IMG/VR virus record: IMGVR_UViG_3300030116_003614
Span: 1 to 42,636 of that record
DNA: 42,636 nt
From: a virus
Reading direction: 5' to 3' (one strand)
The position numbers and the translations under genes were made by a program. Below, piece after piece: positions 1 to 42,636 of the stretch (positions within the stretch are counted from its first letter, which is position 1; every line of letters starts with the position of its first letter). The notes below the pieces were generated by a model, which had not been told where the DNA came from, did no database searches, and worked only from the letters and a program-made list of their open reading frames with translations.

Positions 1-151
1 AATTTCCGAAAGTATCAATACTATAATCGCCATCACTTAATGTCGTTATTTTTGCTGGTGGAACATTATCTACACTATAGTCTGATTTATTTTCATCTTT
101 TATGTCAAACTTATAATCTGGATTGCCAAATGTATCGACACTATAATCCAT
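1..151 (-). CDS. Giant polyvalent virion protein, N-terminal fragment cut by window edge
   Basis: Only the first 50 codons are present, reading off the left edge. The fragment starts MDYSVDTFGNPDYKF and repeats related DYSVD/DYSIDTFGN motifs, matching the N-terminus of the 2497-residue protein at 34708-42201 apart from substitutions and a two-residue deletion. Its ATG overlaps the stop of the upstream gene as TAATG, exactly as in the right-hand copy. It is most likely the same gene seen from another strain, with its remainder at the right end of the window. Confidence 0.85.
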   Translation of the reverse strand, partial: MDYSVDTFGNPDYKFDIKDENKSDYSVDNVPPAKITTLSDGDYSIDTFGN

Positions 152-586
152 TAATTCAATTCACTTTTAATCTGATTAATAACTGCTTTAGCTTGGTCAC
201 TATCGTATCCAAAGTCTCGTATAATTTTTCTTTTTACTTCTTCTTCACCCATGTTATTAAAATTTCTTTTAAAATTATTATAAAAATATAACGGAAACTT
301 AAAATTACTGCTAAAAAATCCACTACCTATTTCAACAATTCCATCTGCAATCATTCTAGAATTTCTTTGGAATGCTTCAGTAAATGTTATTTTTCTTTTT
401 TCGCCATTAGGCCTATTTCGATCTACAGGTACTCCATTATTAAAATCACTAAATACTTGTTTTAAAAATATATCATTTATTCTGCTTCTAAACTTTGCAC
501 CAAAATCTTGGTAAGCAGCATTACTTTCGTACAGATTAAGAACAGCATCTTGTACCTGTTTAATCTTAGGCATTCCTTTTTTGTCT
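1..586. repeat. Left copy of diverged terminal redundancy
   Basis: This segment corresponds to 42045-42636 at an offset of about 42050 bases. Both copies hold the start of the giant polyvalent gene and the 3' end of the gene before it. The encoded 140-residue tails differ at about 15 positions, and the left copy lacks two codons (Ile-Asn) in the giant gene's N-terminus, so this is not an exact terminal repeat. Circular permutation with strain mixing is the simplest explanation; a true tandem duplication is possible but less likely. Confidence 0.85.
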
Positions 587-13228: not shown

Positions 13229-13733
13229 TTAATGACTCTGCTTTGTCCTTAACTTCTTGATTTCTTCTTAACCAACCTTTGCCAAATACCTCAAATGTGC
13301 TTAAATCTCTATAAAATGCTTCTCTTTCTGTGCAAAGCGCAAGAATAATATCTTTTCTATCCATTTCTTTAACTTTTGCTATAGTTTGATTGCCAATCGC
13401 ACCATCAACTGTAGCACCTACAACTTTTTGCAAGAATTTAGCTGCACGACCAGTTCCATGATTTACAGACATATCAAAAACAACATAATCAACGCCAACA
13501 GGCAAATCATCACATTTACATCTATCCCAATAATTTTTTTTGTATATTGGTTTAACGTCATCTTTTGTTAATTTCATCATATCTTGCTTATCAACTTCAT
13601 ATCCTAGCCAATCTTCATAAACTTTTTTTGTAACACCAAGATTTGTCATGCCACCTGGATCGCTTGGGTGATTTACAAAACCTCCCTCATGTTTTAAAAC
13701 GTCATTGAGACAATTTTCAAAAAATTCACTCAT
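13215..13733 (-). CDS. Endolysin, GH108-type N-acetylmuramidase
   Basis: A 172-residue lysin. The signature KHEGGFVNHPSDPGGMTNLGVTK (residues 14 onward) is that of glycoside hydrolase family 108, with Glu16 the expected catalytic acid in the HEGG motif. A C-terminal peptidoglycan-binding-like region follows (VGATVDGAIGNQTIAKV). There is no signal peptide, so export needs the holin two genes upstream. It degrades murein glycan strands at the end of infection. The start overlaps the 3' end of the zinc mini-protein gene. Confidence 0.9.
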   Translation of the reverse strand: MSEFFENCLNDVLKHEGGFVNHPSDPGGMTNLGVTKKVYEDWLGYEVDKQDMMKLTKDDVKPIYKKNYWDRCKCDDLPVGVDYVVFDMSVNHGTGRAAKFLQKVVGATVDGAIGNQTIAKVKEMDRKDIILALCTEREAFYRDLSTFEVFGKGWLRRNQEVKDKAESLNESY

Positions 13734-15578: not shown

Positions 15579-15770
15579 CTACCTCACCAACAAACCTATT
15601 AACAAAACAATTGTCGTACCAGCTGTGCCTATAAGTATATGCTCCAACCTTTTTATCCGTAATATTGTCTCCACCCAACGCTCATTTGTAAGAGCAATGT
15701 GCGTGTCCATTTGTGCTTTTACTTCTGTTACTGATGGTCTAGGCATATATTCTAATATTACACCCCACAC
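15579..15770 (-). CDS. Small tail-anchored membrane protein (XhlA-like layout)
   Basis: A 63-residue protein starting at GTG 15770 (overlapping the upstream stop as TAGTG), or 55 residues from ATG 15746; neither has a strong ribosome binding site. It consists of an amphipathic helix (VTEVKAQMDTHIALTNERWVETILRIKRLE) and a C-terminal hydrophobic helix of about 18 residues. This layout resembles XhlA-type proteins of phage lysis cassettes. Role not demonstrated. Confidence 0.6.
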   Translation of the reverse strand: MWGVILEYMPRPSVTEVKAQMDTHIALTNERWVETILRIKRLEHILIGTAGTTIVLLIGLLVR

Positions 15771-16339
15771 TATGCTTTTATTTCTTGTGCCATGATAAAG
15801 CTAATAGCTCTTTCGTGTGTGTTACCATCAGCATCAGTTACTGTTCTATTTATATATAAAGTTCCAGTTCCACTCGTAGGATAATATGTATCAAATGCTA
15901 AATTATATGTTATTTGTGAAGTTGTATTATGTGCGCTATCAAAATAAGTACAATCTATTACCTCTAGAGTTGAAGATGCATTTGCATCGGTATAGGCATC
16001 AATAACAGTAGCAACTCCTACTCGTCTATTACCAACTGGATCTGGTTTCATTGCCGTGCCATTTCTTAAAAAATAAAACATATTATTTGCAGTCCAATAA
16101 TTTTGATTATACTCTAGGTACACAGTCGACTGTAATTTAATAATAGAATTACTAAAAAAAGGAGTAATGTTTACTGCTACACCAGTAAGTGTTGTTTGAG
16201 TATTTGGACTAATTCCTGTTATTTGACTTGCTGTATCAATTTGTGTGTATTGTGTTTGTATAATACTACCACTTGGCATACTACTTGTTGCCAATGCACC
16301 TTGACCACTTCCACCAAAATTTAATTTTGTTAATGCCAT
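15770..16339 (-). CDS. Tail-associated adhesin, beta-sandwich type
   Basis: A 189-residue protein with an N-terminal Gly/Ser tag (MALTKLNFGGSGQGALATSSM) and a beta-rich body (ITPFFSNSIIKLQSTVYLEYNQN, TLYINRTVTDADGN, AISFIMAQEIKA). The ITPxFxxSxIKL pattern is common in phage structural proteins with a jelly-roll head, and is shared with the protein at 17408-17917. It is the distal member of a run of fibre/adhesin genes. Probably a receptor-binding or decoration tip protein. AGGA lies about 9 bases before the ATG. Confidence 0.65.
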   Translation of the reverse strand: MALTKLNFGGSGQGALATSSMPSGSIIQTQYTQIDTASQITGISPNTQTTLTGVAVNITPFFSNSIIKLQSTVYLEYNQNYWTANNMFYFLRNGTAMKPDPVGNRRVGVATVIDAYTDANASSTLEVIDCTYFDSAHNTTSQITYNLAFDTYYPTSGTGTLYINRTVTDADGNTHERAISFIMAQEIKA

Positions 16340-16342
16340 AAT

Positions 16343-16885
16343 CTATCCTATTAAATGTCCACTTGCTGAAGCAAAATAATTACTAGCTTTATCTTGCACA
16401 AAAACATATGCCTTAATTGCGTTAAATCTAATATAATCTCCACTATTTAAAGCAAGTGCAATAGTAAAGCTCATATTTATATATCCATTTCCACTATTAA
16501 AAAAAGCATATCCACCCATAGCTGCAGTTGTATAATTACTGCCACTATCTGTAGATTTTTGTAAAACAACTTGAGCATCAGCAGTACTATTTAATACACT
16601 ACCAGACGAGTTTCTAGTTCCAAATCCATTAAAACTAAATTGATATATTCCTGTTATTGGTGCTTCAAATCTATTGTTAGAAGAGTTCCAATGTGAGCCT
16701 TGATTAGTAACAATTCCATTAAAATTAAGAACACCAGTTTGTGAAGCATTACTTGAAGTTGCAGTAAATGCTTCTACATGAAAGAAAGGTAATTGTGGTT
16801 TAGTAACTCTACCACTTCCATCAATAGTCAAAGATGAAGTGCCACTACTGTTCTGAATATTATTTACTTTAATTATGCTTGTCAT
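16343..16885 (-). CDS. C1q-like tail adhesin
   Basis: A 180-residue protein. The short N-terminal attachment motif (MTSIIKVNNIQNSSGTSSLT then IDGSGRV) occurs in many marine phage tail proteins. The body has the C1q/TNF signature: FNGIVTNQG, NNRFEAPITGIYQFSFNGFG and a closing YIRFNAIKAYVFVQD strand. Such domains trimerise and bind surface ligands. The N-terminal motif is shared with the next upstream gene, which suggests a common docking site on the tail. Confidence 0.72.
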   Translation of the reverse strand: MTSIIKVNNIQNSSGTSSLTIDGSGRVTKPQLPFFHVEAFTATSSNASQTGVLNFNGIVTNQGSHWNSSNNRFEAPITGIYQFSFNGFGTRNSSGSVLNSTADAQVVLQKSTDSGSNYTTAAMGGYAFFNSGNGYINMSFTIALALNSGDYIRFNAIKAYVFVQDKASNYFASASGHLIG

Positions 16886-16889
16886 ATCT

Positions 16890-17411
16890 TTATCCTAATA
16901 AATAGCAAGTAAATGAAGACTTATCATTTTCTGAGTTCCAATTAGAGAATGAATTATCCCACCCAACCAATACCTCATGACCAGCTGTCAAAGGGTATAT
17001 TAATGAACCACCAATAGTGTATCCTTTGTAATCATTGCCACTATATGCAGTTATCAATTGTGTATAAGAACTACCATTATAAACAAACATAAATATTCCA
17101 CGATAATCTGTGCTTGTACCTCTGTGTGAATAAACTGCTAAATGATAATTCCCTGTAACTGGTGCAACAAATCTACCATTTGATAAACAATTTCCAATAT
17201 TTACATCTGTTACAGACCAAGCAGTAACTTCTATAAAATTTGCATAAGCAGTACTATTAGCTGTTGAATTAGATTGTCCTCTTACAGACATCATTGGTTT
17301 TGTTGGTTGAAAAACACGACCAGAACTATCAATAGTCATAGCAGTATTAGTGCCAGTACTATCTTTTATATTAGCGACTTCTAAGTTTGTGGCATTTATA
17401 ATTCCACTCAT
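16890..17411 (-). CDS. C1q-like tail adhesin
   Basis: A 173-residue relative of the downstream gene: the N-terminal NATNLEVANIKDSTGTNTAM then TIDSSGRV motif, and a C1q-like body with SNGRFVAPVTGNYHLAVYSH, YTIGGSLIYPLTAGHEVLVGWD. The N-terminal IKDSTG(T)..(M)TIDSSGRV repeat is a recurring tail-tip docking motif in marine phages. The start overlaps the upstream stop by 4 bases. Likely one of several alternative or jointly displayed receptor-binding proteins. Confidence 0.72.
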   Translation of the reverse strand: MSGIINATNLEVANIKDSTGTNTAMTIDSSGRVFQPTKPMMSVRGQSNSTANSTAYANFIEVTAWSVTDVNIGNCLSNGRFVAPVTGNYHLAVYSHRGTSTDYRGIFMFVYNGSSYTQLITAYSGNDYKGYTIGGSLIYPLTAGHEVLVGWDNSFSNWNSENDKSSFTCYLLG

Positions 17412-17917
17412 TGGGCAATCTCCATAATCACTATTGTAGAAGCAGAAGCACCACCATATCTTCTGCTTGATACATCACCATTTTGATAAACAGAACCACT
17501 ATTTGCACCTAATCCTACTTTAAAAGTAGTAGTAGCAGTTGAACCAGCATCCATAAAATGTGTTAAATTCCAATGAGCATTATCTCCATTACTACTAAAA
17601 TATTGAGGTAAAACTTGTATAGCTTCACCACTATCTTTGAATAAACAACAAGCAGTATAAGCATTATATTGATGACCACCAGGAATGCTTGCTTGTATAT
17701 ACAATTTACTATCAGCAAATTTTGGAGTTATACTTACTGATACACAGATATGAACTTCTGATTGTTGTGGCACAGTATCATCTCTAGCTAAACCAGCAGT
17801 TGCACCACCATTATAAGCTGAATTAGAATTACCAACTACTTGAATAACATGATTAGGTATCTTTACATTATTACCACTCGTCTTTGGCTCTATTGTATCT
17901 ACAAATATTTTAGACAA
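17408..17917 (-). CDS. Tail-associated adhesin
   Basis: A 169-residue beta-rich protein beginning MSKIFVDTIEPKTSGNNVKI, the classic short N-terminal docking motif (VDTIEPKTSG) of marine phage tail proteins. The body has ISITPKFADSKLYIQASI, similar to the strand pattern in the 15770-16339 protein, and a Gly/Ser-rich C-terminal part ending IVIMEIAQ. Probably a trimeric tip protein. It overlaps both neighbouring genes by a few bases. Confidence 0.7.
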   Translation of the reverse strand: MSKIFVDTIEPKTSGNNVKIPNHVIQVVGNSNSAYNGGATAGLARDDTVPQQSEVHICVSVSITPKFADSKLYIQASIPGGHQYNAYTACCLFKDSGEAIQVLPQYFSSNGDNAHWNLTHFMDAGSTATTTFKVGLGANSGSVYQNGDVSSRRYGGASASTIVIMEIAQ

Positions 17918-18374
17918 TTGTTAACACTCCATTTACTGTTAAAGTAACACCATTATCTATGGTTATATCTCCAGCAACCATTGCTCTCTCACCACTAGCT
18001 ATTGTTATGTTACTTGATATGTTTGAATCATTTATTCTTAATGGATCACGAAACAATGTACTTGATAATTTAGACCCTTGTATTGATCCATCACTAGGTA
18101 CGCCAGTTGACAATGCATTACCCATAACAAGGACATAATCAATGACATCATTCGCATTTAAACTTTCAGTAAAAACAATGTTACTTCCACTAATGCTAAA
18201 TGCATCTATCGGCGCTTGTGTTACGCCATTTACAGAAACAATACATTGTTGTGCAGTTCCTGGAGAAAAAGCTGCACCATTTCTTTGTAAAGCAAAAGTA
18301 TCTGTGGCAGTAACAGGTATGCTATCTAGCTTTATATACTCTCCCTGTAAGGGTTCTTGGCCAATATAACTCAT
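17910..18374 (-). CDS. Short tail fibre segment protein
   Basis: A 154-residue protein starting MSYIGQEPLQGEYIKLDSI. The middle region (CIVSVNGVTQAPIDAFSISGSNIVF, LNANDVIDYVLVMGNALS) is the same beta domain found in the 285-residue and 424-residue fibre proteins (xVNGxxxxPxxxYxxxGxxxxxT...DxIxVxxxG). The C-terminus is a hydrophobic beta ladder (NITIASGERAMVAGDITIDNGVT) typical of fibre caps. It may be an intermediate link between fibre shaft and adhesins. Confidence 0.7.
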   Translation of the reverse strand: MSYIGQEPLQGEYIKLDSIPVTATDTFALQRNGAAFSPGTAQQCIVSVNGVTQAPIDAFSISGSNIVFTESLNANDVIDYVLVMGNALSTGVPSDGSIQGSKLSSTLFRDPLRINDSNISSNITIASGERAMVAGDITIDNGVTLTVNGVLTIV

Positions 18375-18377
18375 CTG

Positions 18378-18668
18378 TTACTCCGTTGGTTTCTCTGGAA
18401 ACTTAAAATCTTTGTCATTCATGCTTTTAAATTTCTTAGTTATATCTCTAAGTTCTTGTCTATATGTTTTCCATTTAGTTGACATGGTAACATCTGAGTT
18501 ACCCATATAGTCTGTTTCAGATAATAATGAATTTCTTTGACTTCTTAGTTCAGCCAACTCTCTATCAGCTTTTCCATCATTCCATGCTTGTTCTTCAGCA
18601 TCTCTTGCTTTTTCTTCTTTCGCTGTAAATTTTATTCTTTGACCATCTTTTATTCTATATCTTGCCAT
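18378..18668 (-). CDS. Tail fibre assembly chaperone-like protein
   Basis: A 96-residue charged helical protein. The C-terminal half contains LRSQRNSLLSETDYMGN, YRQELRDITKKF and FPEKPTE, which is the pattern of the Phage_tail_APC family (RxxRNxLLxxxDw...YRqaLRDit...P.kP), usually a small chaperone or companion encoded next to tail fibre genes. Embedded within the adhesin array, 9 bases downstream of one member's stop in gene order. Helps fold or attach a neighbouring fibre, by analogy. Confidence 0.75.
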   Translation of the reverse strand: MARYRIKDGQRIKFTAKEEKARDAEEQAWNDGKADRELAELRSQRNSLLSETDYMGNSDVTMSTKWKTYRQELRDITKKFKSMNDKDFKFPEKPTE

Positions 18669-19276
18669 TAGTTTTTAATCCCATATACTTTTACAAATCC
18701 ACTTGTAAATTGTCCACTTACTGGATAAAATCTTAATCCATTAACAACTGTAGCATATTGTGAAGCTATTAATTGACCACCAAATTGAGTATTAAATGGC
18801 TCTCCTGCATTATAATAATAAGTCGCAGCATGACCAATCCAATAAGCACTTTTTGTTGTACTATTTACATTTAAAAGGTGCATTGAAAAACTAGTGCCCT
18901 CTCCAGTAGCACTTCCTATTCCATCTCCATGTGCTAATTGAGCACCATATGAAGTAAGATTGCTGTTAGAATATGAAGATGCAGCAAAAGCACCAGATTC
19001 ATATCCATAAACATTTCCAGTTAAAACTGAACCACTAGAAAAAACTCTTAGTCGTATATTTTGGCTTGCATTATCAGAGCTTACATTAAAACCACCAATA
19101 ATATAATAGTTATCAAAAGATGAGTTTATATATGTTGAACTAATATCATATTCATCAGCATTACTTGAAAATGATCCAGCAAATAATTTATCCATTGAAT
19201 TACCAGTAACAGTACCAGTAAAAGCAAAGGTATCTGCTAAGTTTATTGATTCTGCTTGTATCTTACTTAATGCCAT
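18668..19276 (-). CDS. Tail protein, beta-sandwich type
   Basis: A 202-residue protein with the N-terminal motif MALSKIQAESINLADTFAFT, characteristic of marine phage tail proteins, and a beta-rich body (FDNYYIIGGFNVSSDNASQNIRLRVF, SFSMHLLNVNSTTKSAYWIG, TVVNGLRFYPVSGQFTSGFVKVYGIKN). The layout FxGSFxxxxxxxxxxxxxxxFDNYxIIxxF...GxxxxxxVYGI is a recurring family in phages of marine bacteria. Probably an exposed tail or receptor-contact protein. Confidence 0.7.
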   Translation of the reverse strand: MALSKIQAESINLADTFAFTGTVTGNSMDKLFAGSFSSNADEYDISSTYINSSFDNYYIIGGFNVSSDNASQNIRLRVFSSGSVLTGNVYGYESGAFAASSYSNSNLTSYGAQLAHGDGIGSATGEGTSFSMHLLNVNSTTKSAYWIGHAATYYYNAGEPFNTQFGGQLIASQYATVVNGLRFYPVSGQFTSGFVKVYGIKN

Positions 19277-19279
19277 ATC

Positions 19280-20137
19280 TTAACCTATTCTAAATCCACA
19301 AAAGAAATTGTATTCTTGATTGTTTGCTGGGATAACTGGTGTACTTCCACTTCTTGTTCCCGAAGCATATATTGCTTGTCCAGCAGTAAAGTATCCGTTT
19401 GTTTGTGCTTGACCTAAAATATAACCATCATAACCAGTATAATTTGATTGATACCTCCATCTTTCTCCAGTAATTAAAATTGAAGCATTACTACTGCCAT
19501 CATCATCTGTCCTATGCAACTGTATCTTTTGTACGTCAGCACCACCCATACTAGAAAATATTGCTGAATGAAGAAAAAAATAAACACCAGTAACTGGTAT
19601 TATAAATTTACCAGTACTTGTATTATAATGATTACCAACATTATGCGCTCCCCATGCTGCTGTTGTTACATCTGGATAAATTATTGGATTACCACCAATG
19701 CCCTTAGTAGCATTGTCGTTAACAGCTTTAAAAGACGCAGTTGCAAAACTACCACCATTTGCAGATGGTAATACTCCAGTAACTTTAGACGCTAAATCTA
19801 TTGTACTATTGGCTATTTTAGCATTTGTTACAGCAGTATCAGCTATCTTTGCAGTACCAACACTACCATCTGGTGGCACAGTTGTTTGTACTGCTTTTGC
19901 TAAATACAAAACATAAATGTCATCTGAAGAAGTTACAGTACCTGTTAAATTAACAGTAGTTCCATTTGTTGTATAAGCTTCATTTGGCTCTTGTCTTACA
20001 TTATTAATATACAAAGCTATATCAAAAGCATTTGCTACTGCATGAGTAAGTGTAAGACTTGTGCCACTTGCACCAGTTAAGTCTTGCTTTTCTAAACTTG
20101 TAAAGTTTGCGCTTGATTTGTTTCCTATATACGTCAT
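19280..20137 (-). CDS. Tail fibre with C1q-like head
   Basis: A 285-residue two-part protein. Residues 1-95 form the beta domain found across this array (TLTHAVANAFDIALYINNVRQEPNEAYTTNGTTVNLTGTVTSSDDIYVLYL). Residues 95-140 form a shaft-like repeat (DGSVGTAKIADTAVTNAKIANSTIDLASKVTGVLP). The last 130 residues resemble a C1q domain (HYNTSTGKFIIPVTGVYFFLHSAIFSS ... FTAGQAIYASGTR ... EYNFFCGFRIG). Probably a trimeric fibre tip. The start overlaps the upstream stop by 4 bases. Confidence 0.78.
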   Translation of the reverse strand: MTYIGNKSSANFTSLEKQDLTGASGTSLTLTHAVANAFDIALYINNVRQEPNEAYTTNGTTVNLTGTVTSSDDIYVLYLAKAVQTTVPPDGSVGTAKIADTAVTNAKIANSTIDLASKVTGVLPSANGGSFATASFKAVNDNATKGIGGNPIIYPDVTTAAWGAHNVGNHYNTSTGKFIIPVTGVYFFLHSAIFSSMGGADVQKIQLHRTDDDGSSNASILITGERWRYQSNYTGYDGYILGQAQTNGYFTAGQAIYASGTRSGSTPVIPANNQEYNFFCGFRIG

Positions 20138-32761: not shown

Positions 32762-33062
32762 CGAAAAGACTTTGCTTACGCAAAAGCAAGCTTCTCTTTT
32801 GCTCAAAGTGTCGATAAAAACGATATACAGACTTAGACAACAAGGCAAGCTTACAACAATTAAAATTGGTAAAAGCGTAAAATTGAAAAGGAGCGACATT
32901 GAATGGCTGATAAAACAAAAGGAAATAGATCTCTTCCACCAAGGTTATGTAACAAAACAGAAGATAACGGATATTACTATGTTCTGTTCTCACAAAACGG
33001 AAGAAGTCGTAAACAGAGTTTACGGACAAAAGATCGCCAAGAAGCTGAAGTTAGGTTTTTAG
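32748..33062 (+). CDS. Excisionase/AlpA-like HTH protein overlapping integrase
   Basis: A 104-residue frame. Residues 8-62 (LLTQKQASLLLKVSIKTIYR, LRQQGKLTTIKIGKSVKLKR, SDIEWLIKQK) are a typical winged HTH_17/MerR-type excisionase domain. Excisionases usually end there, but this frame continues for about 45 more codons, overlapping the integrase by 160 bases in another frame. It overlaps the repressor stop by 14 bases. It would direct integrase toward excision. The functional end of the protein may be the basic tail encoded in the overlap. Confidence 0.72.
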   Translation: MVVINEKTLLTQKQASLLLKVSIKTIYRLRQQGKLTTIKIGKSVKLKRSDIEWLIKQKEIDLFHQGYVTKQKITDITMFCSHKTEEVVNRVYGQKIAKKLKLGF

Positions 33063-34006
33063 GCTGGTTAGAGCAAAGACAAAAAGACATTATATCAATG
33101 ACAACATCTGATCCAACAATAGAAAGTTGTATTGAATTTTGGTTAGAACAACAGGTCATAAGATTAACACCTGGCATTCAAACAAGGTATAAATCTTTAG
33201 TTAAAAATTTACTTGCGTATTTTGGTCAAAAAACAGTTGGAGAAATACAAAGGCAAGATTCACAAAAATATTTTTTGCTTAGACAAAATGGAAGTATAGG
33301 AAAAACAAAAGCAACTAACTCAACAATACAATTAGAATTAGGAGTATTGCGTACTTTACTAAACTTTATGGTTAGAAAAGTAGAACCTAGACAAAGACGC
33401 ATTGACGCTAAACTTTTGCCTTACATTGAATTACCAGAACCATCTTTGCCTAGAGATCGTGTCATTACAAAAGAAGAAGAAGAAAAATATTTAGATTTTG
33501 CTATGAATGGAAATTATAATGGAGTTGGCGTAAGGCCATCTAATCGTGTTCATCGTATGCAAATTTTTTTGGTATTAGCTATTGAGACAGCAGCAAGGAA
33601 ATCTGCCATACTTAATTTAAAATGGTCTATGATTGATTTTACAAAAGGTCTTATAAATTTTTTACCAGATACTGAGCATCAATCACACAAAAGACGACCA
33701 ACAATACCGATGTCTGATCTGCTAATAAATTTTATGAAAAAAGTATATGAAGAAAAAGTTAATGATTATGTACTTACTAAAACAACAGATGTTAAATCTG
33801 GCTTAGATCGCATCAATAAATTACTTGGAATAAAAGGTGTAATACCACACACTTTTCGGCATACTTGGGCAACAAGAGCAGCTGAAGATGGAGTATCAAT
33901 GAAAGTGATAGCAGATTTTATGGGAGATACTGAAAAAACTGTAAGAGAAAATTATTTACATCTGTCTCCAGATTACCTTAGATCAGCTATAAATCGACAA
34001 AAATAG
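32903..34006 (+). CDS. int: Tyrosine recombinase integrase
   Basis: A 367-residue integrase, start at ATG 32903 behind AGGAG. The N-terminal arm-binding strand region (NGYYYVLFSQNGRSRKQSLR, TKDRQEAEVRFLGWL) is followed by a core-binding domain (85-175) and the catalytic domain with Arg232 (TAARKSAI), Lys263 region (HKRRPTIPM), HTFRH (His316, Arg319) and Tyr351 (ENYLHL). The usual box III His in LGH is Asp342 (MGDTEKTV), a departure from consensus. It recombines the attP-like region directly downstream with a bacterial site. Confidence 0.92.
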   Translation: MADKTKGNRSLPPRLCNKTEDNGYYYVLFSQNGRSRKQSLRTKDRQEAEVRFLGWLEQRQKDIISMTTSDPTIESCIEFWLEQQVIRLTPGIQTRYKSLVKNLLAYFGQKTVGEIQRQDSQKYFLLRQNGSIGKTKATNSTIQLELGVLRTLLNFMVRKVEPRQRRIDAKLLPYIELPEPSLPRDRVITKEEEEKYLDFAMNGNYNGVGVRPSNRVHRMQIFLVLAIETAARKSAILNLKWSMIDFTKGLINFLPDTEHQSHKRRPTIPMSDLLINFMKKVYEEKVNDYVLTKTTDVKSGLDRINKLLGIKGVIPHTFRHTWATRAAEDGVSMKVIADFMGDTEKTVRENYLHLSPDYLRSAINRQK

Positions 34007-34707: not shown

Positions 34708-37700
34708 TTATTCATTTGGTGTCTTATACTTCTTTGATGGTCGCCCTCTCTTGCCACGGATATATTTTTCTCCGTAGATAAGTTCTAGTAAATCGTTTAC
34801 TCTTGCACGTTTAAAATCTTCAGATGACAAATACATTAAACCTGGCGCACCTATTAAAGCTGTTGGTGGAGACATAGGTATTAATGCGTATCCAGTAGAT
34901 AAAACTGGATTTACAGTTAAGTTCCATAATCCTACTAAAGCATTATATTCTGACGCTAATGTATTTTCGCTATTATTAATGTTAAATCCATACTCGATAA
35001 TAGGCTCTAAATTTTGTGCTGCATATCCAGCTGTACCAATTAATGTGTTAGCTAAATCTCTTTGATATTTTAATCCTGTAACCATTTGGTAAAATGGATC
35101 AAACGCACCTGTGAATCCAGATCTTGCAAAAGCTAATGGGAACAAATAATCTTTAACAAACTTAACTGCATCTTTATCGTTATCTTCCCATTCTCTATCA
35201 AATCTTTCTTCGTTAAAAATTAATTCTCTAACAGTTGATACAAGAAAATGACCAGCAAACAAAGTCATAACAGCTGGTGCAATACTTGCTGTAACATATG
35301 CTGTTGCATCTAATGTCGCTTTCTTTTTTGACGCACCTAATTCTTTTGATATTTTATATTCTCTTCCAACTTTTCTTGCCATTCCTTTTAAAACTTTATC
35401 TTGGAAAGAATATATAAATGAAGTTATACCATATACAATTCTTCCTAATGGATTTTCTGCCCATAATGGTCTATCTGCTATTCTTGGATCTTGTATTGTT
35501 TGATCTGTAAATCTTTGTATAGCGACAGCCAACTGCAATCCCATATCACTATATTGACCAGCATCATTCATAATGTCTGATAGTTCTGGTAACTTTGTTT
35601 TACCTTTTACCCTTGCTCTTTTTCTTAACCTTGTAGATGTAAAATCATTAAAGTCTAAAATATAATCTGCAAACTGATCTATTGTTTTATCTTTTACACC
35701 AAAATCATTTAATACTTTTTTTGCTTTTAATTTTTGTCTATCGCTTGTTGGATTCTTATATTCATAAGCCATCTCACTTATAAATTGAAATCCTATTGCA
35801 GCTGCTGATCTTCTTTGTGCATTTGTCATTCCTGTAAGTTTTGTTTTGTAAAAAAACTTTTGTGTTAATCTTTGTAAATTAGGATTATCTACAAACGCAC
35901 CACCTATACGATTTGTTAATATATCGCCAACTTCTGGATCATCAATAACACCTAAGATTCTTGCAAATTGTTGTCGCAATCTGACATCTTCTTTATTACC
36001 ACCTAATTTTCTTATGCCAGGAAATTCTTGTAATGTTTTTATAAAAGCCATCATGCCTTTGGCTGGACTTTCTGAAGTAATAGCTGTGGTAAATGGCTCT
36101 GCAATAGAAGCTATAGGCGCTCTTACTAATAATGTAATAGACATAATAGCAGATAAATAATTAGCAGCTTTATCTCCAGCCATGCCAAGAGATCTGTTTG
36201 ATCTAGATTTGCCTGTAATAAAATCAATTGTTTTAGCAAATCGATCAGCGTCTTTTGGATCTACTGCTAATTGTCTTAATCTTCTTTTAACTAAATATTC
36301 TATATAATCGGTGTATTCATCTTTAGGTATTCTACCCTCTTTATCTTCTTGAGGTATTTTGTTTTTCCCAAATCGTCTATTAAACTCTGCTCTTCTTGTT
36401 GCGCCTAATATGTATTGCTGTATGTTTTCTACAGGATCTGAAATATAAAATTGTTCTAACAATGCATCTGCTTCTGGTGGTAGAGTTCTTTTCTTTGTAA
36501 AGTTACTTTGTGGCGTACCAACTAATGTATCTCCAACTTGTGCTTCTGTAATAGCATTGAACCAATTTGTAGAAGAAACAGTACCAAACAAATCTCGCAT
36601 TTGATCAAAAAATTCTGCGTATTCTTCCTCGATGTTTGCAATAGCTTCGTCTAATTCTGCTTGTGCATCTTCTGCTTTTTTTGTATCACCATCATCATTT
36701 GCTTTCTTAATAACAGCTTTAAGACCTTTTATTTTTTTCCATTTTGATGATTGCACAAAGTTTATATACTCTTCACTATTTACAATACCTAATCTAGAAT
36801 CTTGTATAAATTTTATAACAGCTTCCATTTGATCAAGACTAGCTACATTTATATCTCCAATGTCTTTATCAAAAATAACTTCGTAGACTTTTTTTGCTTG
36901 CTGAAAAAATTTTCTGCTTTGAGCATTCACCATTTCTTGATCAAGTAATCTTTGCATATAACCAGATTCTGCATATCCAATATCTAATCCAGATCCTCTA
37001 ATATATTCGTAAATTTGATTCATCAAATTACGCATTTGACCAGCTGCTTTCTTCACATTGTCTGGTATGTTTCTTTGATCTTTAATTTGACTTGTTAGTA
37101 TGCTTCTAAGCAATGAAATTTCGCCATCACTCATTCCATTTATATCATTTAAAGAAACAATTTTAGCTAATTGTAAACCAAACTTTCTTGCTTCTCTTGT
37201 TTGTGCATTAGAAAAATTATCGCCCTCTGCTTGTGATTGAAATTCACCACCTGTTTGTGTTGCTAAGTTTTGATACAAATATTTCATAACAGGATTGTTT
37301 GGGTATCGTTTCATAATAGATTTTAAGATACCTTGTTTTTGGTAAAACAATGGAGAAAACAATATATCTTCAATAGACTCAAAAAGCTTTCTGCCAAGTT
37401 TTTTTTGTCTTACATTTTCAGTTAATTGTTTTCTCTTTTCTTCCATACGTTGTTTAAATTTTTTATGATCTTGAATAGCTTTACGTTGGTCTGCAAATAA
37501 ACCTTTGCTTTCTTGTTCTTCAACTTCATACATTTTTCTAACATCTATTCGTGTATCTTCTGACGCTGTTTTGCCAACTTCTCCATCACCTAATGTTGTT
37601 TCTGCTGCAATTGCATCTATAAGATTTCTCATAGCACCAAATATCTCTAATCGATCTTCAGCTTTTGGAAAAGTCAACGCCATTCTTGAATCTAAAATTT

Positions 37701-40700
37701 TAGGTAAATCGTCAATGCTTGGATTGCTTAACTGTTCTTTTGTAACATTTAATTGTTCTAATGTTATTTGATAACCATCATTTGTTTTAGCTAAAAAGTC
37801 TGCGTCCATTTTATTTAAGGCCATATGGTATGCTGTAAAAGCTTCTCCAACTCTTGCAAACATTTCATATGAACTTGCCCAATAGTCTTTACTTTGCCCA
37901 TATATTGGTGCAAAAAATTCTGCGTCTTTTCTAAACTGTGTTTTGGCTACAGATCTTGCATTAGCTGATCCACCAAGTATTCTTTCTTTACGTTTTATTA
38001 ATATTTGTAATTGTTTTTCTGATTTTGTTTTAGCAATCTTATCATCAATTTGTTTTAGCTTTAATGCTTCATCTGCTTTGTCTTGAAACATTGCTCTTAC
38101 TAATAAAGCATAAGCATCTTTTACATTTGAAGCTTCTATCTCTGCGCCTTTTCTTGTTAATGCAGACATTAATGGGTGTGGATCATCTATGTTATCTACG
38201 TTTGCGTGTTTCTCGAACAAGTAATGATCTAAAGCATGAAACCATTCGTGAGCAAAACTGTTAACTCTTCTAGGCACAGTTATTGTTTTTGTGCTTGGAC
38301 TATAAGATCCATATGCTCCTAAAGTTTTAACCATATTAAAAGTTAATGTTCCGTCTAATCCAATAGCTTTGTATGGTAAATTAAAAAAATTAGCTAGTGC
38401 AGATAAATTATGAAATCCAGTTAACAGTTGATCGACAGCTTCTTTTGTATTGGCGTTACTAGACTTTGTAACTGACTTCATGCCAAATCTTTCGACAAAC
38501 ATTTTTTGCAATATTTTAAATTGTCTTTCGATTGGCAAGTTAACTGCAATATCTGGATCGACACCAGCTGCTTCAAACGCAGAAAATATTAACGCTGTTT
38601 TGTTTCTTTCTGCAAGTTTGTCGACAAGTGTTCCTGGCTTTTCGACTCTTTGGTTTTCGTAATCTTTTTCACTTTTAATTTGTAAACTTTCGGTAGCAGA
38701 TTCTTTGGTAGCTTTCCTATCTGGTTCAATGGTTGCATCTTTTAAATCCTCCTGTTTAGTGTCGAATTTCTTTTTTGCTGCTTCAAGTATATCAATAGCT
38801 TCAAAAAATTCCGACATTAAATTGTCTCTATAAGTATATGCTGCTGTTAAATAGGCATTACCCTCAAATCCTTTTCTAGAATTTGTTAGTTTTGATCTAG
38901 AAAATTTTTCTGACAAACCTTTAAATAAAGGTGAATTTTTTAATTTATTTAATTCTTCATCTAATTTATTTGTTGTTACTAATTCACCAACAGTTTTATC
39001 AATAATAACATATGTATCACCACTTATCTTTTTTAGTGTTTTAACGTATGACTTAAAAGTTCCATCTTTATGTTTTAAAAGATTTTGTTCTTTTGCTTCT
39101 TTGTAACCTGGAACTGAATTACTGTCTTTTATTTTTATAGTAACTGTAGTGTCAAAAGTAACATCTTTTAACTTTTCTTGTTTTGACTCATCTTCTTTTT
39201 GAACTTCATCACTTCTTGTCTTAGTATCGGTTCTTTGTTTTTGTTCGCTACTCTCAGTAGGCTTTGCATCATCAGATCTAGTGCTTCCTTTGAGGAGGTC
39301 TGGGGTTTCTTCGCCATCTAATTTGCTCCTTGCAGTTTTTACAACATCTTCTGGTGTTGTTGTATCTTCTAAAAATCCACCAACTTGTTTTCTTTCAGCT
39401 TCATCGACATAAAAACCTAACAACTCTGTCATGTATTTTTGTGATTTTGCTCTAGTTAATTTATCATTGTAAATTGTCTTTATTAATAACTCAACCATAG
39501 GATCAAGATTTTGTATTATGTCTGTTTGGTTGACAATATCACTAACAGCTTGATTGTTTTTTCTAGCATTAGATATTTTTAAGGCCATATCTGTTAATTG
39601 ATTAGTAATATCAAACTGTGCTGGAACTGTTCCATTGCTAATTAAAGATTTAAGATTTGCAAATCGAGGTGCTACATTAAGTAAAGCGTTTGATATAGCT
39701 TTGATGTTGTCATCTGTGCTGTCAATCATAACAGCTAATGCATCAGTATTTTCATATGCAGAAGCTAATATAGCGTTTTGTATTCTTGTAACGCCCTCTT
39801 TTGTTAAAACTCCATCTCTACTAATATTGCCTTGTTCGTTTTTAGTAACAACTTTATCGATAAAAGATTTTACAAATTGCTGGTTATCTAAACTTGTTAT
39901 GTCGCCACCTTTAAACTGCTGAATGATGTCTGAACCCATTGCTTGGCTATCTCTTTGCGCTCTTTCAGTAGCTGACATCTGAGCAATAATATCTCTATTA
40001 GATAAATCTGCTATTTCAACTAATTCTTCTTGCGTAATATTGTCGTCCAACACACGCACTAATATAGGGTTTTCTATCCCAGATAAATCTTGGCCTGTAG
40101 TTTCAGATATTCTGTTTTTATATGTATTGTAATTTTCTTTAAAATTATCTCTTGCTTCTTTTAATGATAAAACACGACCATTACCAGATATAATTGTTCC
40201 ATCTTTTGTTATAATCGGTGCGCCTGTATTTGTCGTTGGACTTTCTAACAATTGTTCTGGATCTAGATTTGACGCTCTTTCTTTAGATAAGACTTCTGAC
40301 TCTTTTAATGTTCTGTCTCTTGGCTGTAAATCACCAGACGCTGCTTTTAATTTATCTAAATCAACAATTATTGTTTTAACATTAACTTCTTTTTCAGAGT
40401 TTGGCGTTCTAATTTTCTTTACATCACTTTCGTAATCTACAACTTTATCTATATCTGCAAGCGTTTCTTTGCTTGTCAAAACCTGTTCAACTGTAGTTGT
40501 ATTAGCAATAATGCCATCTATGTTGTCCTTGATTTTATTTGCTTTATCTAACTCAGCTTGTGCTTGTGTTGTATCTTGATTTGTTTCTCTTGATAATTGC
40601 AATTCTAAATTAATTAAATCAATAATTTCATCTAATTCTTTTTTAGGATTTTCGCTTTTTACAATATCATCAATAACTACAACAATATCATCTGCGTCTT

Positions 40701-42201
40701 TTTTACCATCAAGATCTCTTGTAGCAATTGTAATGGTTTTATTATCAACTTCTCTTGTCTGGCTTGCAGACTCCTCGGAGGATTGAGAAGTCTGCAACTC
40801 TGAATCTTCCTCGAATGTAGCTTTTAATTTATCTACTACTTCTTTTTGTTTTTTAAATCTGTTTGCAGCAATAACATTTGTACCTATCTCTATTGCTCCT
40901 GTTGGGAATTCAGCTATACCCTCTAAGCCAACTTCTCCATAATTTATTTCGTCTTTTAATCCCTCTGCAACTTGTAAAAATTGTCCTGTAAAATCACCAG
41001 CACTTCCAAGTAATCCTTGTCCAGCTAATTCTGCTGTTGAAGCGCCAACTACTGCTTTGTTTGTTGCACCAGATTTTATAACTGGAGAAACTAATTTACC
41101 AGCTAAACCCATAGACAAAGCATCAAAAACTGCAACTGGTATACCATATAAAGCTGCACTCTTTTTTGCCTTTGCGTAAAAAGCTGGATCAGTAAGTTTA
41201 GCCTGTACAGCTTTTTCATCTGTCATATCTACGCCAGATTGCGCTAATTCTTGATTTATAACATCAGCATAGGTTGTACCAAATGTAACAATACCAGCTG
41301 CTCCAGCACCAACTAATGGACTACCAGCAACAGATCCAGTTATAAACACACCTAAACTAGCTAAAGATGATGGCAAAGATTCTCCAACAACACTTAATAC
41401 TGCTGATGGATTTGTAGCTATAGCAGATAAAATGTTTTTCCAACCTTTTGCATCTACAATTTCTTTTAAACCTTTTTGTATATCTGGTGGCTGTGTTGGA
41501 GATACTCTGTTTAATTCTGTTATAAGTTTTACAGTTTCAGAAGCATTGTTCCAACCAAGCGTCAAACCTAATTGTGCCATGCCTTGATTGGCTCTTACAA
41601 ATCCTCGTGTTAATGCATTATTAGGTAATCTTGAATCTTCTGGAGATAATAAATTAGATCTAGCTATTAAATCTATAGCAATGTTATCATCTACTTTAGC
41701 TTCTCCCATTGGAGTTTTAAGAAAAAAGTTTCCTGGCGTACCACCTACACCACTACTAACAGGATTTATATTTATGTTAGGCGTTGTAATAGCATCTGGC
41801 CTTGTAATAATATCTGTTAATCTTTGCTTTTCATTGTTAAAAGCAATGTCATCTTGTTCTGCTTTAAGTCTATTTTGTTCTGCAAGATTTTCGTTTTGTT
41901 TGAAATTAAAACTTCTACCTCTTTGATTTCTTGGATATTCAGTTCTTTTGTTCTTTAATCCTTGATCGCTAAATTCAACTGAATCTACAAATAAATTTTG
42001 TTGTACAGGCTGTTTTGTTTCTATTGGCTCTGGTTTAAAATTTGCGTTACCAAATGTATCAATACTATAATCGTTTATTCCATCACTTAATGTCGTTATG
42101 TTTGCTGGTGGAGCATTGTCTGTATTATAGTCTGATTTTTCGTCATCTTTGTTGTCAAACTTATAATTTGGATTGCCAAATGTATCGACACTATAATCCA
42201 T
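34708..42201 (-). CDS. Giant polyvalent/ejection protein (ParB-like and HEXXH domains)
   Basis: A 2497-residue protein at the T7 gp16 position. The N-terminus repeats DYSVDTFGN/DYSIDTFGN at residues 2 and 44, followed by Asn/Gln-rich linkers. Residues about 250-390 contain hydrophobic, Gly/Ala-rich segments (SSLASLGVFITGSVAGSPLV). A DdrB/ParB-like nuclease-type domain spans about 600-760 (ISGNGR at 671-676; ILVRVLD; ADLSNRDI). A coiled, charged linker follows. A zincin-like domain near 1250-1400 carries HEWFH at 1318-1322. The rest is long helical spacer, ending with amphipathic and hydrophobic regions (about 2280-2440). No lysozyme motif is seen. It probably enters the host with the DNA. Confidence 0.85.
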   Translation of the reverse strand: MDYSVDTFGNPNYKFDNKDDEKSDYNTDNAPPANITTLSDGINDYSIDTFGNANFKPEPIETKQPVQQNLFVDSVEFSDQGLKNKRTEYPRNQRGRSFNFKQNENLAEQNRLKAEQDDIAFNNEKQRLTDIITRPDAITTPNININPVSSGVGGTPGNFFLKTPMGEAKVDDNIAIDLIARSNLLSPEDSRLPNNALTRGFVRANQGMAQLGLTLGWNNASETVKLITELNRVSPTQPPDIQKGLKEIVDAKGWKNILSAIATNPSAVLSVVGESLPSSLASLGVFITGSVAGSPLVGAGAAGIVTFGTTYADVINQELAQSGVDMTDEKAVQAKLTDPAFYAKAKKSAALYGIPVAVFDALSMGLAGKLVSPVIKSGATNKAVVGASTAELAGQGLLGSAGDFTGQFLQVAEGLKDEINYGEVGLEGIAEFPTGAIEIGTNVIAANRFKKQKEVVDKLKATFEEDSELQTSQSSEESASQTREVDNKTITIATRDLDGKKDADDIVVVIDDIVKSENPKKELDEIIDLINLELQLSRETNQDTTQAQAELDKANKIKDNIDGIIANTTTVEQVLTSKETLADIDKVVDYESDVKKIRTPNSEKEVNVKTIIVDLDKLKAASGDLQPRDRTLKESEVLSKERASNLDPEQLLESPTTNTGAPIITKDGTIISGNGRVLSLKEARDNFKENYNTYKNRISETTGQDLSGIENPILVRVLDDNITQEELVEIADLSNRDIIAQMSATERAQRDSQAMGSDIIQQFKGGDITSLDNQQFVKSFIDKVVTKNEQGNISRDGVLTKEGVTRIQNAILASAYENTDALAVMIDSTDDNIKAISNALLNVAPRFANLKSLISNGTVPAQFDITNQLTDMALKISNARKNNQAVSDIVNQTDIIQNLDPMVELLIKTIYNDKLTRAKSQKYMTELLGFYVDEAERKQVGGFLEDTTTPEDVVKTARSKLDGEETPDLLKGSTRSDDAKPTESSEQKQRTDTKTRSDEVQKEDESKQEKLKDVTFDTTVTIKIKDSNSVPGYKEAKEQNLLKHKDGTFKSYVKTLKKISGDTYVIIDKTVGELVTTNKLDEELNKLKNSPLFKGLSEKFSRSKLTNSRKGFEGNAYLTAAYTYRDNLMSEFFEAIDILEAAKKKFDTKQEDLKDATIEPDRKATKESATESLQIKSEKDYENQRVEKPGTLVDKLAERNKTALIFSAFEAAGVDPDIAVNLPIERQFKILQKMFVERFGMKSVTKSSNANTKEAVDQLLTGFHNLSALANFFNLPYKAIGLDGTLTFNMVKTLGAYGSYSPSTKTITVPRRVNSFAHEWFHALDHYLFEKHANVDNIDDPHPLMSALTRKGAEIEASNVKDAYALLVRAMFQDKADEALKLKQIDDKIAKTKSEKQLQILIKRKERILGGSANARSVAKTQFRKDAEFFAPIYGQSKDYWASSYEMFARVGEAFTAYHMALNKMDADFLAKTNDGYQITLEQLNVTKEQLSNPSIDDLPKILDSRMALTFPKAEDRLEIFGAMRNLIDAIAAETTLGDGEVGKTASEDTRIDVRKMYEVEEQESKGLFADQRKAIQDHKKFKQRMEEKRKQLTENVRQKKLGRKLFESIEDILFSPLFYQKQGILKSIMKRYPNNPVMKYLYQNLATQTGGEFQSQAEGDNFSNAQTREARKFGLQLAKIVSLNDINGMSDGEISLLRSILTSQIKDQRNIPDNVKKAAGQMRNLMNQIYEYIRGSGLDIGYAESGYMQRLLDQEMVNAQSRKFFQQAKKVYEVIFDKDIGDINVASLDQMEAVIKFIQDSRLGIVNSEEYINFVQSSKWKKIKGLKAVIKKANDDGDTKKAEDAQAELDEAIANIEEEYAEFFDQMRDLFGTVSSTNWFNAITEAQVGDTLVGTPQSNFTKKRTLPPEADALLEQFYISDPVENIQQYILGATRRAEFNRRFGKNKIPQEDKEGRIPKDEYTDYIEYLVKRRLRQLAVDPKDADRFAKTIDFITGKSRSNRSLGMAGDKAANYLSAIMSITLLVRAPIASIAEPFTTAITSESPAKGMMAFIKTLQEFPGIRKLGGNKEDVRLRQQFARILGVIDDPEVGDILTNRIGGAFVDNPNLQRLTQKFFYKTKLTGMTNAQRRSAAAIGFQFISEMAYEYKNPTSDRQKLKAKKVLNDFGVKDKTIDQFADYILDFNDFTSTRLRKRARVKGKTKLPELSDIMNDAGQYSDMGLQLAVAIQRFTDQTIQDPRIADRPLWAENPLGRIVYGITSFIYSFQDKVLKGMARKVGREYKISKELGASKKKATLDATAYVTASIAPAVMTLFAGHFLVSTVRELIFNEERFDREWEDNDKDAVKFVKDYLFPLAFARSGFTGAFDPFYQMVTGLKYQRDLANTLIGTAGYAAQNLEPIIEYGFNINNSENTLASEYNALVGLWNLTVNPVLSTGYALIPMSPPTALIGAPGLMYLSSEDFKRARVNDLLELIYGEKYIRGKRGRPSKKYKTPNE

Positions 42202-42636
42202 TAATTTAATTCACTTTTAATCTGATTTACAATTGCTTTGGCTTGGTCGCTATCGTATCCAAAGTCTCGTATAATTTTTCTTTTTACATCTTCTTCACCA
42301 AATACGTTAAAATTTCTTTTTAAAAGATTATAAAAATATGCTGGAAACTTAAAATTACTGCTAAAAAATCCACTACCTATTTCAACAATTCCCTCTGAAA
42401 TCATTCTAGAATTTCTTTGAAATGCTTCAGTAAATGTTATTTGTCTTTTTTCGCCATTAGGTCTATTTGGATCTACAGGTACTCCATTATTAAAATCACT
42501 AAAAACTTGTTTCATAAATATATCATTTATTTTACTTCTAAACTTTGCACCAAAATCTTCGTAAGCAGCATTACTTTCGTACAGATTAAGAACAGCATCT
42601 TGTACCTGTTTAATCTTAGGCATTCCTTTTTTGTCT
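42045..42636. repeat. Right copy of diverged terminal redundancy
   Basis: Counterpart of bases 1-586 (see there). Gene order, start codons and the TAATG junction are the same in both copies; the right copy carries two extra codons in the giant gene. Removing one copy would give a circle of about 42.05 kb. Confidence 0.85.
42201..42636 (-). CDS. Internal virion protein, C-terminal part cut by window edge
   Basis: Open at the window end, this frame encodes the last 144 residues of a homologue of the 423-residue protein at 151-1422, beginning in the charged region (DKKGMPKIKQVQDAVLNLYE). About 15 of 140 residues differ, clustered around the YFYNLLKRNFNVFGEED segment. An internal ATG at 42623 is not the true start. 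It is most likely a strain variant of the same gene. Confidence 0.85.
   Translation of the reverse strand, partial: DKKGMPKIKQVQDAVLNLYESNAAYEDFGAKFRSKINDIFMKQVFSDFNNGVPVDPNRPNGEKRQITFTEAFQRNSRMISEGIVEIGSGFFSSNFKFPAYFYNLLKRNFNVFGEEDVKRKIIRDFGYDSDQAKAIVNQIKSELN

What the first reader, a model, noticed from the sequence alone, without database searches (positions are those of the whole stretch)
34708..42201. Giant 2497-residue protein combining ParB-like and HEXXH domains at the ejection-protein position
About 18 percent of the genome encodes one protein. In place of the T7-like transglycosylase it has a DdrB/ParB-like domain (ISGNGR 671-676) and a zincin motif (HEWFH 1318-1322), between repeated N-terminal motifs and a hydrophobic C-terminal end. 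Polyvalent proteins are thought to enter the host with DNA and guard it. A protease entering with the genome could process co-ejected proteins or attack host defence proteins.
Basis: partly seen in the sequence, partly recalled or inferred. Interest (0 to 1): 0.72.

Follow-up and report, generated by a model that had tools for sequence, protein, structure and literature searches.

The report
Giant phage injection protein with protease
This phage makes one huge protein, probably injected into the bacterium with the viral DNA, that joins a DNA-handling domain and a zinc-protease domain to the same kind of injection machinery phage T7 uses; the parts are known, but the way they are joined is informative and testable.

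Summary
The ORF is real: window 34708-42201, minus strand, 2497 aa, with ISGNGR at 671-676 and HEWFH at 1318-1322. It holds a ddrB-type ParB domain (603-718, E 1.5e-29) and a zincin.
What I add: (1) The last ~900 residues are a helical hub related to gp16-type internal virion proteins, so this is a polyvalent protein built on a gp16-type hub. (2) The zincin keeps its active site (H1318, E1319, H1322, D1325, Y1440, E1446, E1453) in 78/78 fetched relatives. A search blind to it still finds HEWxH in 35 of 37. Its model resembles anthrax lethal factor's catalytic domain (Z 10). (3) Pfam 'LPD1' is the second half of this zincin. (4) ParB (43/63) and other N-terminal parts come and go while zincin plus hub stay together; one relative has an N4-RNA-polymerase-type zincin in that slot. 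(5) The N-terminus carries a short motif repeated two or three times, private to each phage. Most likely role: an injected protein whose zincin cuts phage proteins, probably itself; that step is inferred. Virion presence and catalysis are untested.

The parts
34708..42201 (-). Giant ORF, 2497 aa, in the gp16 slot of the virion gene order
   Evidence: ORF and translation; full-length relatives with the same layout in IMG/VR and Microcystis phage Mae-Yong1326-1
42031..42198 (-). N-terminal tandem short motif, residues 2-57 (DYSVDTFGNPNYK / DYSIDTFGNANFK)
   Evidence: Self-alignment against shuffles p = 0.01; 24 of 48 relatives against 6 of 96 control segments; motif found only in the giant of each phage except one; both copies kept in the strain variant at the window start while the linker differs
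40876..41493 (-). Ala/Gly-rich module, residues 237-442
   Evidence: Found in 35 of 63 relatives by iterated profile search; also Limnohabitans phage DC33 at 238-442
39337..40416 (-). ddrB-type ParB module, residues 596-955; Pfam ddrB-ParB at 603-718; invariant R628, R630, G673, N674, G675, R676, Y694, R806
   Evidence: Pfam E 1.5e-29; 43 of 63 relatives; invariant residues
37492..38604 (-). Zincin domain, residues 1200-1570 of the protein (modelled piece); HEXXH at 1318-1322, conserved D1325, Y1440, E1446, R1450, E1453
   Evidence: Conservation; model with mean pLDDT 90.3; VIA Z 10.2-10.3 to anthrax lethal factor, 7-8 to PPEP and MtfA-like peptidases
37603..37896 (-). Pfam LPD1, residues 1436-1533: C-terminal half of the zincin with the candidate third zinc ligand E1446
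   Evidence: Pfam; lies inside the single modelled domain; in genomes found by LPD1 alone, 4 of 4 above the cut-off have HEWxH 58-69 aa upstream
34762..37404 (-). Helical C-terminal hub, residues 1600-2480, related to gp16-type internal virion proteins
   Evidence: hhalign to five T7-like gp16 proteins: probability 83.5, E 8.3e-6, 340 columns, controls below 1%; BFVD matches to internal virion and core proteins; T7 core protein 9jyy_I is the best VIA match, Z 6.8
42201..42623 (-). C-terminal part of the gp15-slot ORF directly upstream (140 aa, cut by the record end)
2..151 (-). N-terminal 50 codons of a second, diverged copy of the giant (strain variant at the record end)

Best explanation
It is an internal virion (ejection) protein of a podovirus-like phage. 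A C-terminal hub of the gp16 type packs in the head core and, after ejection, would sit at or inside the inner membrane. Upstream of the hub the protein carries a lethal-factor-like zincin, and upstream of that a ddrB-type ParB module that should act on NTP and the incoming DNA. The tandem motif at the extreme N-terminus would be a docking or packaging tag that fits a partner of the same phage. The zincin sits between the exchangeable N-terminal part and the fixed hub, so its likeliest job is to cut phage proteins: its own linker, freeing the ParB part in the cytoplasm, or co-ejected proteins. Shown here: the domains, their order, conservation of the active site, kinship of the hub with gp16-type proteins, and exchange of the N-terminal parts. 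Inferred: packaging, injection, topology, zinc binding, proteolysis and its target.
For: Gene order and slot. ParB by Pfam E 1.5e-29, with SGNGR invariant in 43 relatives. Zincin: H1318, E1319, H1322, D1325, Y1440, E1446, E1453 in 78/78 (H1318 and E1319 were part of the fetching pattern, the others were not); HEWxH in 35 of 37 in a search with C-terminal patterns only, including five contigs the first pattern could not have found. Model pLDDT 90, Z 10.2-10.3 to lethal factor's catalytic domain. Hub: hhalign, BFVD and PDB core proteins. Zincin and hub distances agree (r 0.80-0.87) better than ParB and hub (0.71) or the Ala/Gly module and hub (0.45). L132 has an N4-vRNAP-type zincin in the same slot (E 5.5e-8, the only such hit). 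Precedents: P1 DdrB is a virion protein by mass spectrometry (PMC9024508) and is reported to be processed (PMC5512222).
Against: No virion proteomics for this phage. N4 vRNAP, which has the same layout, is ejected whole and its authors saw no degradation (PMC12633501), so a zincin in this slot need not cut its own chain. L135 keeps the hub without any HEXXH, so the zincin is not strictly required. The third zinc ligand rests on conservation and on the fold match, not on measured distances. No cleavage site was found. Two to seven parts of the argument are sequence-based only.
Confidence: 0.6

Rival explanations
1. The zincin is an injected effector: after entry it cuts host proteins (defence, envelope or regulatory), and ParB acts separately on DNA.
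For: Lethal factor, the best fold match, cuts host-cell proteins; Iyer et al. list this as one of the possible roles of these domains (PMC5512222).
Against: The zincin stays with the hub across relatives whose N-terminal parts differ, and its divergence follows the hub's; a host-directed effector would be expected to be swapped or lost more often. A shared fold does not tell the substrate.
Confidence: 0.22
2. The zincin is a structural leftover or a regulator, not a working protease, as may hold for the C1 domain of N4 vRNAP.
For: N4 vRNAP carries HExxH and is ejected unprocessed (PMC12633501; PMC5512222). Zincin-like folds with HExxH can have other chemistry.
Against: All catalytic-type residues (H, E, H, D and the downstream Y, E, R, E) are invariant over relatives that share as little as 22-30% of the core, which a purely structural part would not need.
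Confidence: 0.18
3. The zincin replaces T7's transglycosylase in breaching the cell wall by cutting peptidoglycan peptides.
For: No transglycosylase in the giant; the protein takes the gp16 slot.
Against: The zincin lies just before the hub, not at the N-terminus where T7 has its transglycosylase; its closest folds are protein endopeptidases. Other relatives show a weak, sub-threshold M15-type peptidoglycan peptidase at the N-terminus instead (L060, E 0.019).
Confidence: 0.08

Closest known systems
Phage P1 DdrB and the phage-type polyvalent proteins (Iyer et al. 2017, PMC5512222)
   Same: ddrB-type ParB plus a zincin-type metallopeptidase in one protein of the late region; HEXXH followed by Asp three residues on, as described there for a widespread phage-type clade; P1 DdrB is in the virion (PMC9024508).
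   Different: P1 DdrB matches only the ParB module (residues 624-906). Here the zincin is followed by a ~900-aa gp16-type hub and preceded by a tandem N-terminal motif; the conserved His at the end of strand 2 that the paper gives for that clade is not conserved here (alignment).
T7 gp16 / internal virion protein D
   Same: Gene slot after the gp15-type gene; C-terminal half related.
   Different: No N-terminal transglycosylase; ParB and zincin added; about twice the length.
N4 virion RNA polymerase (gp50)
   Same: Giant ejected protein in the same slot with the order cargo - HExxH domain - large helical domain (PMC12633501).
   Different: Cargo is an RNA polymerase; zincin similarity is weak and short (hhalign probability 34, 38 columns) and no similarity of the helical C2 domain to the hub was detected.
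Microcystis phage Mae-Yong1326-1 'peptidoglycan transglycosylase' (UUJ74515)
   Same: 28% identity over 1200-2479, same gene order, HEXXH kept.
   Different: No ParB module; a further HELGH at residue 954. The transglycosylase name is not supported by Pfam.
Anthrax lethal factor / PPEP / MtfA-type peptidases
   Same: Fold of the zincin domain (Z 10 / 7-8 / 7-8).
   Different: About 10-15% sequence identity; different context; substrate unknown.

Membership tests
Phage-type polyvalent proteins (Iyer et al. 2017) | Two or more domains of unlike activity in one long protein | tested here: met
   ddrB-ParB and LPD1 over their Pfam cut-offs; zincin model
Phage-type polyvalent proteins (Iyer et al. 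2017) | Encoded among virion genes | tested here: met
Phage-type polyvalent proteins (Iyer et al. 2017) | Enters the host with the DNA | not testable with these tools
   needs virion proteomics or a translocation assay
DdrB-like ParB domain | Profile match with the conserved active-site Arg | tested here: met
   E 1.5e-29; R628, R630, R676, R806 invariant in 43 relatives
Zincin metallopeptidase, lethal-factor-like | HEXXH on a helix | tested here: met
   H117-133 in the model carries it; 78/78 conserved
Zincin metallopeptidase, lethal-factor-like | Downstream Glu as third ligand on a second helix | tested here: inconclusive
   E1446 and E1453 are both invariant and lie on helix 245-263 of the model; distances not measured
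Zincin metallopeptidase, lethal-factor-like | Fold of the catalytic domain | tested here: met
   VIA Z 10.2-10.3 over about 190 residues, rmsd 4.7-5.7; Foldseek alone gave no significant hit
Zincin metallopeptidase, lethal-factor-like | Peptidase activity | not testable with these tools
   bench assay needed
gp16-type internal virion protein | Related C-terminal domain | tested here: met
   hhalign probability 83.5 in the tool and 71.8 in the script, controls below 1%; BFVD E 1e-9 to 1e-7 to named internal virion proteins
gp16-type internal virion protein | N-terminal SLT transglycosylase (T7 only; stated to be absent from P22-like phages, PMC8954989) | tested here: not met
   no Pfam SLT match; T7 gp16 control E 1.7e-31
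gp16-type internal virion protein | Present in the head core | not testable with these tools
   needs virion proteomics or cryo-EM
N4 virion RNA polymerase family | RNA polymerase domain | tested here: not met
   no such match in Pfam or PHROGs
N4 virion RNA polymerase family | C2 helical domain | tested here: not met
   hhalign and hmmsearch at the level of shuffled controls

The most novel reading that the evidence does not exclude
Ejection proteins of this kind are a modular injection chassis: a fixed 'zincin plus gp16-type hub' unit, an exchangeable N-terminal cargo (ParB, or other domains) and a private N-terminal docking tag. The zincin is the release device that frees the cargo after passage. 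The slot matters more than the zincin lineage, since one relative has an N4-polymerase-type zincin in it.
Probability: 0.3. Interest if true: 0.72.

Novelty: new variant of a known kind. Interest (0 to 1): 0.5.

Why it matters
Iyer et al. inferred that phage polyvalent proteins are injected mostly from gene neighbourhood. Here the polyvalent part is fused to a domain related to gp16-type proteins, whose founding member is known to be ejected, which makes injection a direct structural prediction. The finding also gives Pfam LPD1 a role (the second half of a zincin), and it gives a clear test of the old question of what the metallopeptidase in injected giant phage proteins does: compare wild type and an E1319 mutant for cleavage during assembly and entry.

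Tried and rejected
First IMG/VR scan with the whole protein found nothing: poorly conserved peptides were chosen. Alignment A2 was too diverse to search with. Foldseek against PDB gave no significant hit for either model; only the VIA second look and BFVD were informative. VIA for the hub is modest (Z 6.8, within what helical models may give by chance), so it is used only with hhalign and BFVD. Phmmer and profile search of PDB sequences found no relative. The Ala/Gly-rich module 237-442 looked like T7 gp16 residues 320-410 by eye, but hhalign gave 0.4%: rejected. Homology of the hub with N4 vRNAP C2: not detected. PADLOC: nothing. Plasmids: no relative of the 1200-2480 part. Motif sharing between the N-terminal repeats and other proteins of the same phage: found in one of 28 loci only, at residue 4 of a 272-aa ORF in L063. 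The 13 genomes were fetched with zincin patterns, so their HEXXH-LPD1 pairing is not independent; the four are.

Full report
Observation. The window encodes one ORF of 2497 codons at 34708-42201 on the minus strand, 17.6% of the record. ISGNGR lies at 671-676 and HEWFH at 1318-1322. Pfam finds ddrB-ParB at 603-718 (E 1.5e-29) and LPD1 at 1436-1533 (just over its cut-off). PHROGs finds several unnamed families over the ParB part and a virion structural protein family at 2226-2285 (E 9e-6).

Position. Reading on the minus strand, the order is terminase large subunit (phrog_38, E 3e-107), portal (phrog_12082, E 6e-6), major head protein (phrog_9953, E 4e-41), two tube-protein-like ORFs without a PHROGs match, an internal virion protein of phrog_308 (E 1.6e-7), four ORFs without a match in the gp14/gp15 positions, then across the record ends the giant. 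The record ends overlap by 586 nt at 91% identity: the window start holds the first 50 codons of a diverged copy of the giant and the window end holds a partial second copy of the preceding ORF. I read this as an assembly that ran around a circular map into a strain variant, not as two genes. Microcystis phage Mae-Yong1326-1 shows the same order with a 2441-aa giant directly after its gp15-slot ORF.

Relatives. The Microcystis protein aligns at 28% identity over 1200-2479 (E 1e-133) and not at all over the ParB part. An alignment of the two found 77 loci in IMG/VR. Full-length ones run from 1747 to 2901 aa. Counted from the start to the zincin, the N-terminal part varies from 457 to 1703 aa, while the part from the zincin to the end is of fairly constant length. 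In 63 full-length sequences a ParB module is found in 43 and the Ala/Gly-rich module of residues 237-442 in 35, independently of each other.

Zincin. In 78 sequences H1318, E1319, H1322, D1325, Y1440, E1446, A1449, R1450 and E1453 are invariant. The fetching patterns included NSFAHEW, so H1318 and E1319 are biased in that set; H1322, D1325 and the downstream residues are not, and residue 1321 varies among ten amino acids. A second scan used only C-terminal patterns. Of 37 contigs long enough to tell, 35 have HEWxH; five of these (L114, L121, L122, L123, L134) do not match NSFAHEW and could not have been fetched by the first pattern. Two differ: L132 has HEFVH in another kind of zincin, L135 has none. 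The AlphaFold2 model of 1200-1570 is confident (pLDDT 90.3, pTM 0.88), with HEXXH on helix 117-133 and E1446/E1453 on helix 245-263. VIA gives Z 10.2-10.3 to anthrax lethal factor's catalytic region over about 190 residues, then 8 and below to a Bacteroides peptidase, an MtfA-like hydrolase and PPEP peptidases; Foldseek alone found nothing significant. The same link between polyvalent-protein peptidases and lethal factor was reported from HHpred by Iyer et al. (PMC5512222). The Asp three residues after HEXXH matches the phage-type clade that paper describes.

LPD1. Pfam LPD1 (1436-1533) lies inside this one modelled domain and holds the candidate third ligand. To test this without selecting for HEXXH, I searched 369 gammaproteobacterial genomes for PF18796 alone: five matched over the cut-off, one of which (G009) was known beforehand; all four others have HEWxH 58-69 residues before the LPD1 stretch and the ExxAR(A/S)FE motif in it. 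So LPD1 is best read as the C-terminal half of a zincin. NCBIfam's CLCA_X model covers the other half (1236-1335, E 3e-10, below its family cut-off).

Hub. Residues 1600-2480 model as an all-helical domain (pLDDT 85.5). Profile comparison with five T7-like gp16 proteins gives probability 83.5 (E 8.3e-6) over 340 columns in the C-terminal half of gp16; my own run gave 71.8 with reversed and 20 shuffled controls all below 1%. In BFVD the best matches are large polyvalent-protein-domain proteins of uncultured phages (TM 0.8) followed by proteins named internal virion protein D, internal virion protein, internal core protein and the KPP25 structural protein at E 1e-14 to 1e-7. The best VIA match in PDB is a T7 core protein (9jyy_I, Z 6.8, 281 residues), with another T7 core entry and a phage E1004 core protein also high; these Z values alone would not be enough. 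Taken together the hub is related to gp16-type internal virion proteins.

Fixed and exchangeable parts. Pairwise identities of zincin and hub correlate at r 0.80 over 44 sequences and 0.86-0.87 in the ParB and Ala/Gly carriers; ParB and hub correlate at 0.71, ParB and zincin at 0.54, Ala/Gly module and hub at 0.45. The zincin thus travels with the hub more than the other parts do. L132 makes the point differently: in front of the same hub it has a zincin that matches the C1 domain of N4 virion RNA polymerases (E 5.5e-8, the only sequence of 63 to do so).

N-terminal motif. The first 120 residues of 24 of 48 dissimilar relatives hold a significant internal repeat (p at most 0.02), against 6 of 96 control segments; proline-rich stretches add some of these, so the figure is approximate. 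The repeat differs between phages (FDDLIP, NPFADL, DPWAVV, FDFRPSQ, DGSFGFF and so on) but is nearly exact within each. In 28 loci examined it occurs in another ORF of the stretch only once (L063). The strain variant at the window start keeps both copies letter for letter (DYSVDTFGNP, DYSIDTFGN) although the sequence between them differs and has an indel. This is what a docking or packaging peptide that fits a phage-specific partner would look like; it is not proof of one.

Mechanism. I favour an ejected protein whose hub goes to the inner membrane as proposed for gp16 (PMC8954989), which carries a ParB module into the cytoplasm and uses its zincin on phage proteins, most simply its own linker. 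Precedent: P1 DdrB is found in virions by mass spectrometry (39 peptides, PMC9024508) and was reported to be processed, for which Iyer et al. proposed self-cleavage. Counter-precedent: N4 virion RNA polymerase has the order membrane-binding N-terminal part, RNA polymerase, HExxH domain, helical domain, and no degradation was seen (PMC12633501). The N4 layout is the same with other cargo, but no similarity of the helical domains was found, so this is likeness of plan, not shown kinship.

Novelty and score. The domain pair is known; the fusion to a gp16-type hub, the reading of LPD1, the exchange of cargo in front of a fixed zincin-hub unit and the private tandem motif are additions. I rate it a new variant of a known kind, interest 0.5.

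Noticed in passing
window 1-586 and 42051-42636: The record ends are a 586-nt near-repeat at 91% identity; in the first 50 codons of the giant an ungapped count gives 17 amino-acid-changing against 2 silent codon differences, inflated by a 2-residue indel. Probably a strain variant joined by the assembler.
   Followed up: partly
L132:6614-11527: gp16-type hub preceded by an N4-vRNAP-type zincin; its tandem motif (TDESxLQP) occurs twice at the N-terminus and again three times before the zincin.
   Followed up: partly
L134:2576-12133: 3186-aa relative with ParB, LPD1 and a weak, sub-threshold match to C-5 cytosine methylase (E 0.0027) between them: possible methylase cargo.
   Followed up: partly
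L060, L071, L076, L077 N-termini: SQHxxGHAEDW-type string with a weak Peptidase_M15_4 match in L060 (E 0.019): possible peptidoglycan peptidase as N-terminal cargo in relatives that lack ParB.
   Followed up: partly
L142, L157, L158: Stand-alone 253-273-aa proteins made of HEXXH plus LPD1 only, in bacterial genomes; perhaps the single-domain form of this zincin (CLCA_X-like).
   Followed up: partly
L003:8395-15717: The Microcystis phage giant is named peptidoglycan transglycosylase in GenBank, but Pfam finds no such domain; it has a second HELGH at residue 954.
   Followed up: partly
window 32903-34006 (+) and 13215-13733 (-): By reading, a tyrosine-type integrase and a GH108-type endolysin: the phage looks temperate.
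   Followed up: no
window 15770-20137 (-): A run of five to seven short ORFs with similar starts, probably duplicated tail-fibre or tip proteins.
   Followed up: no
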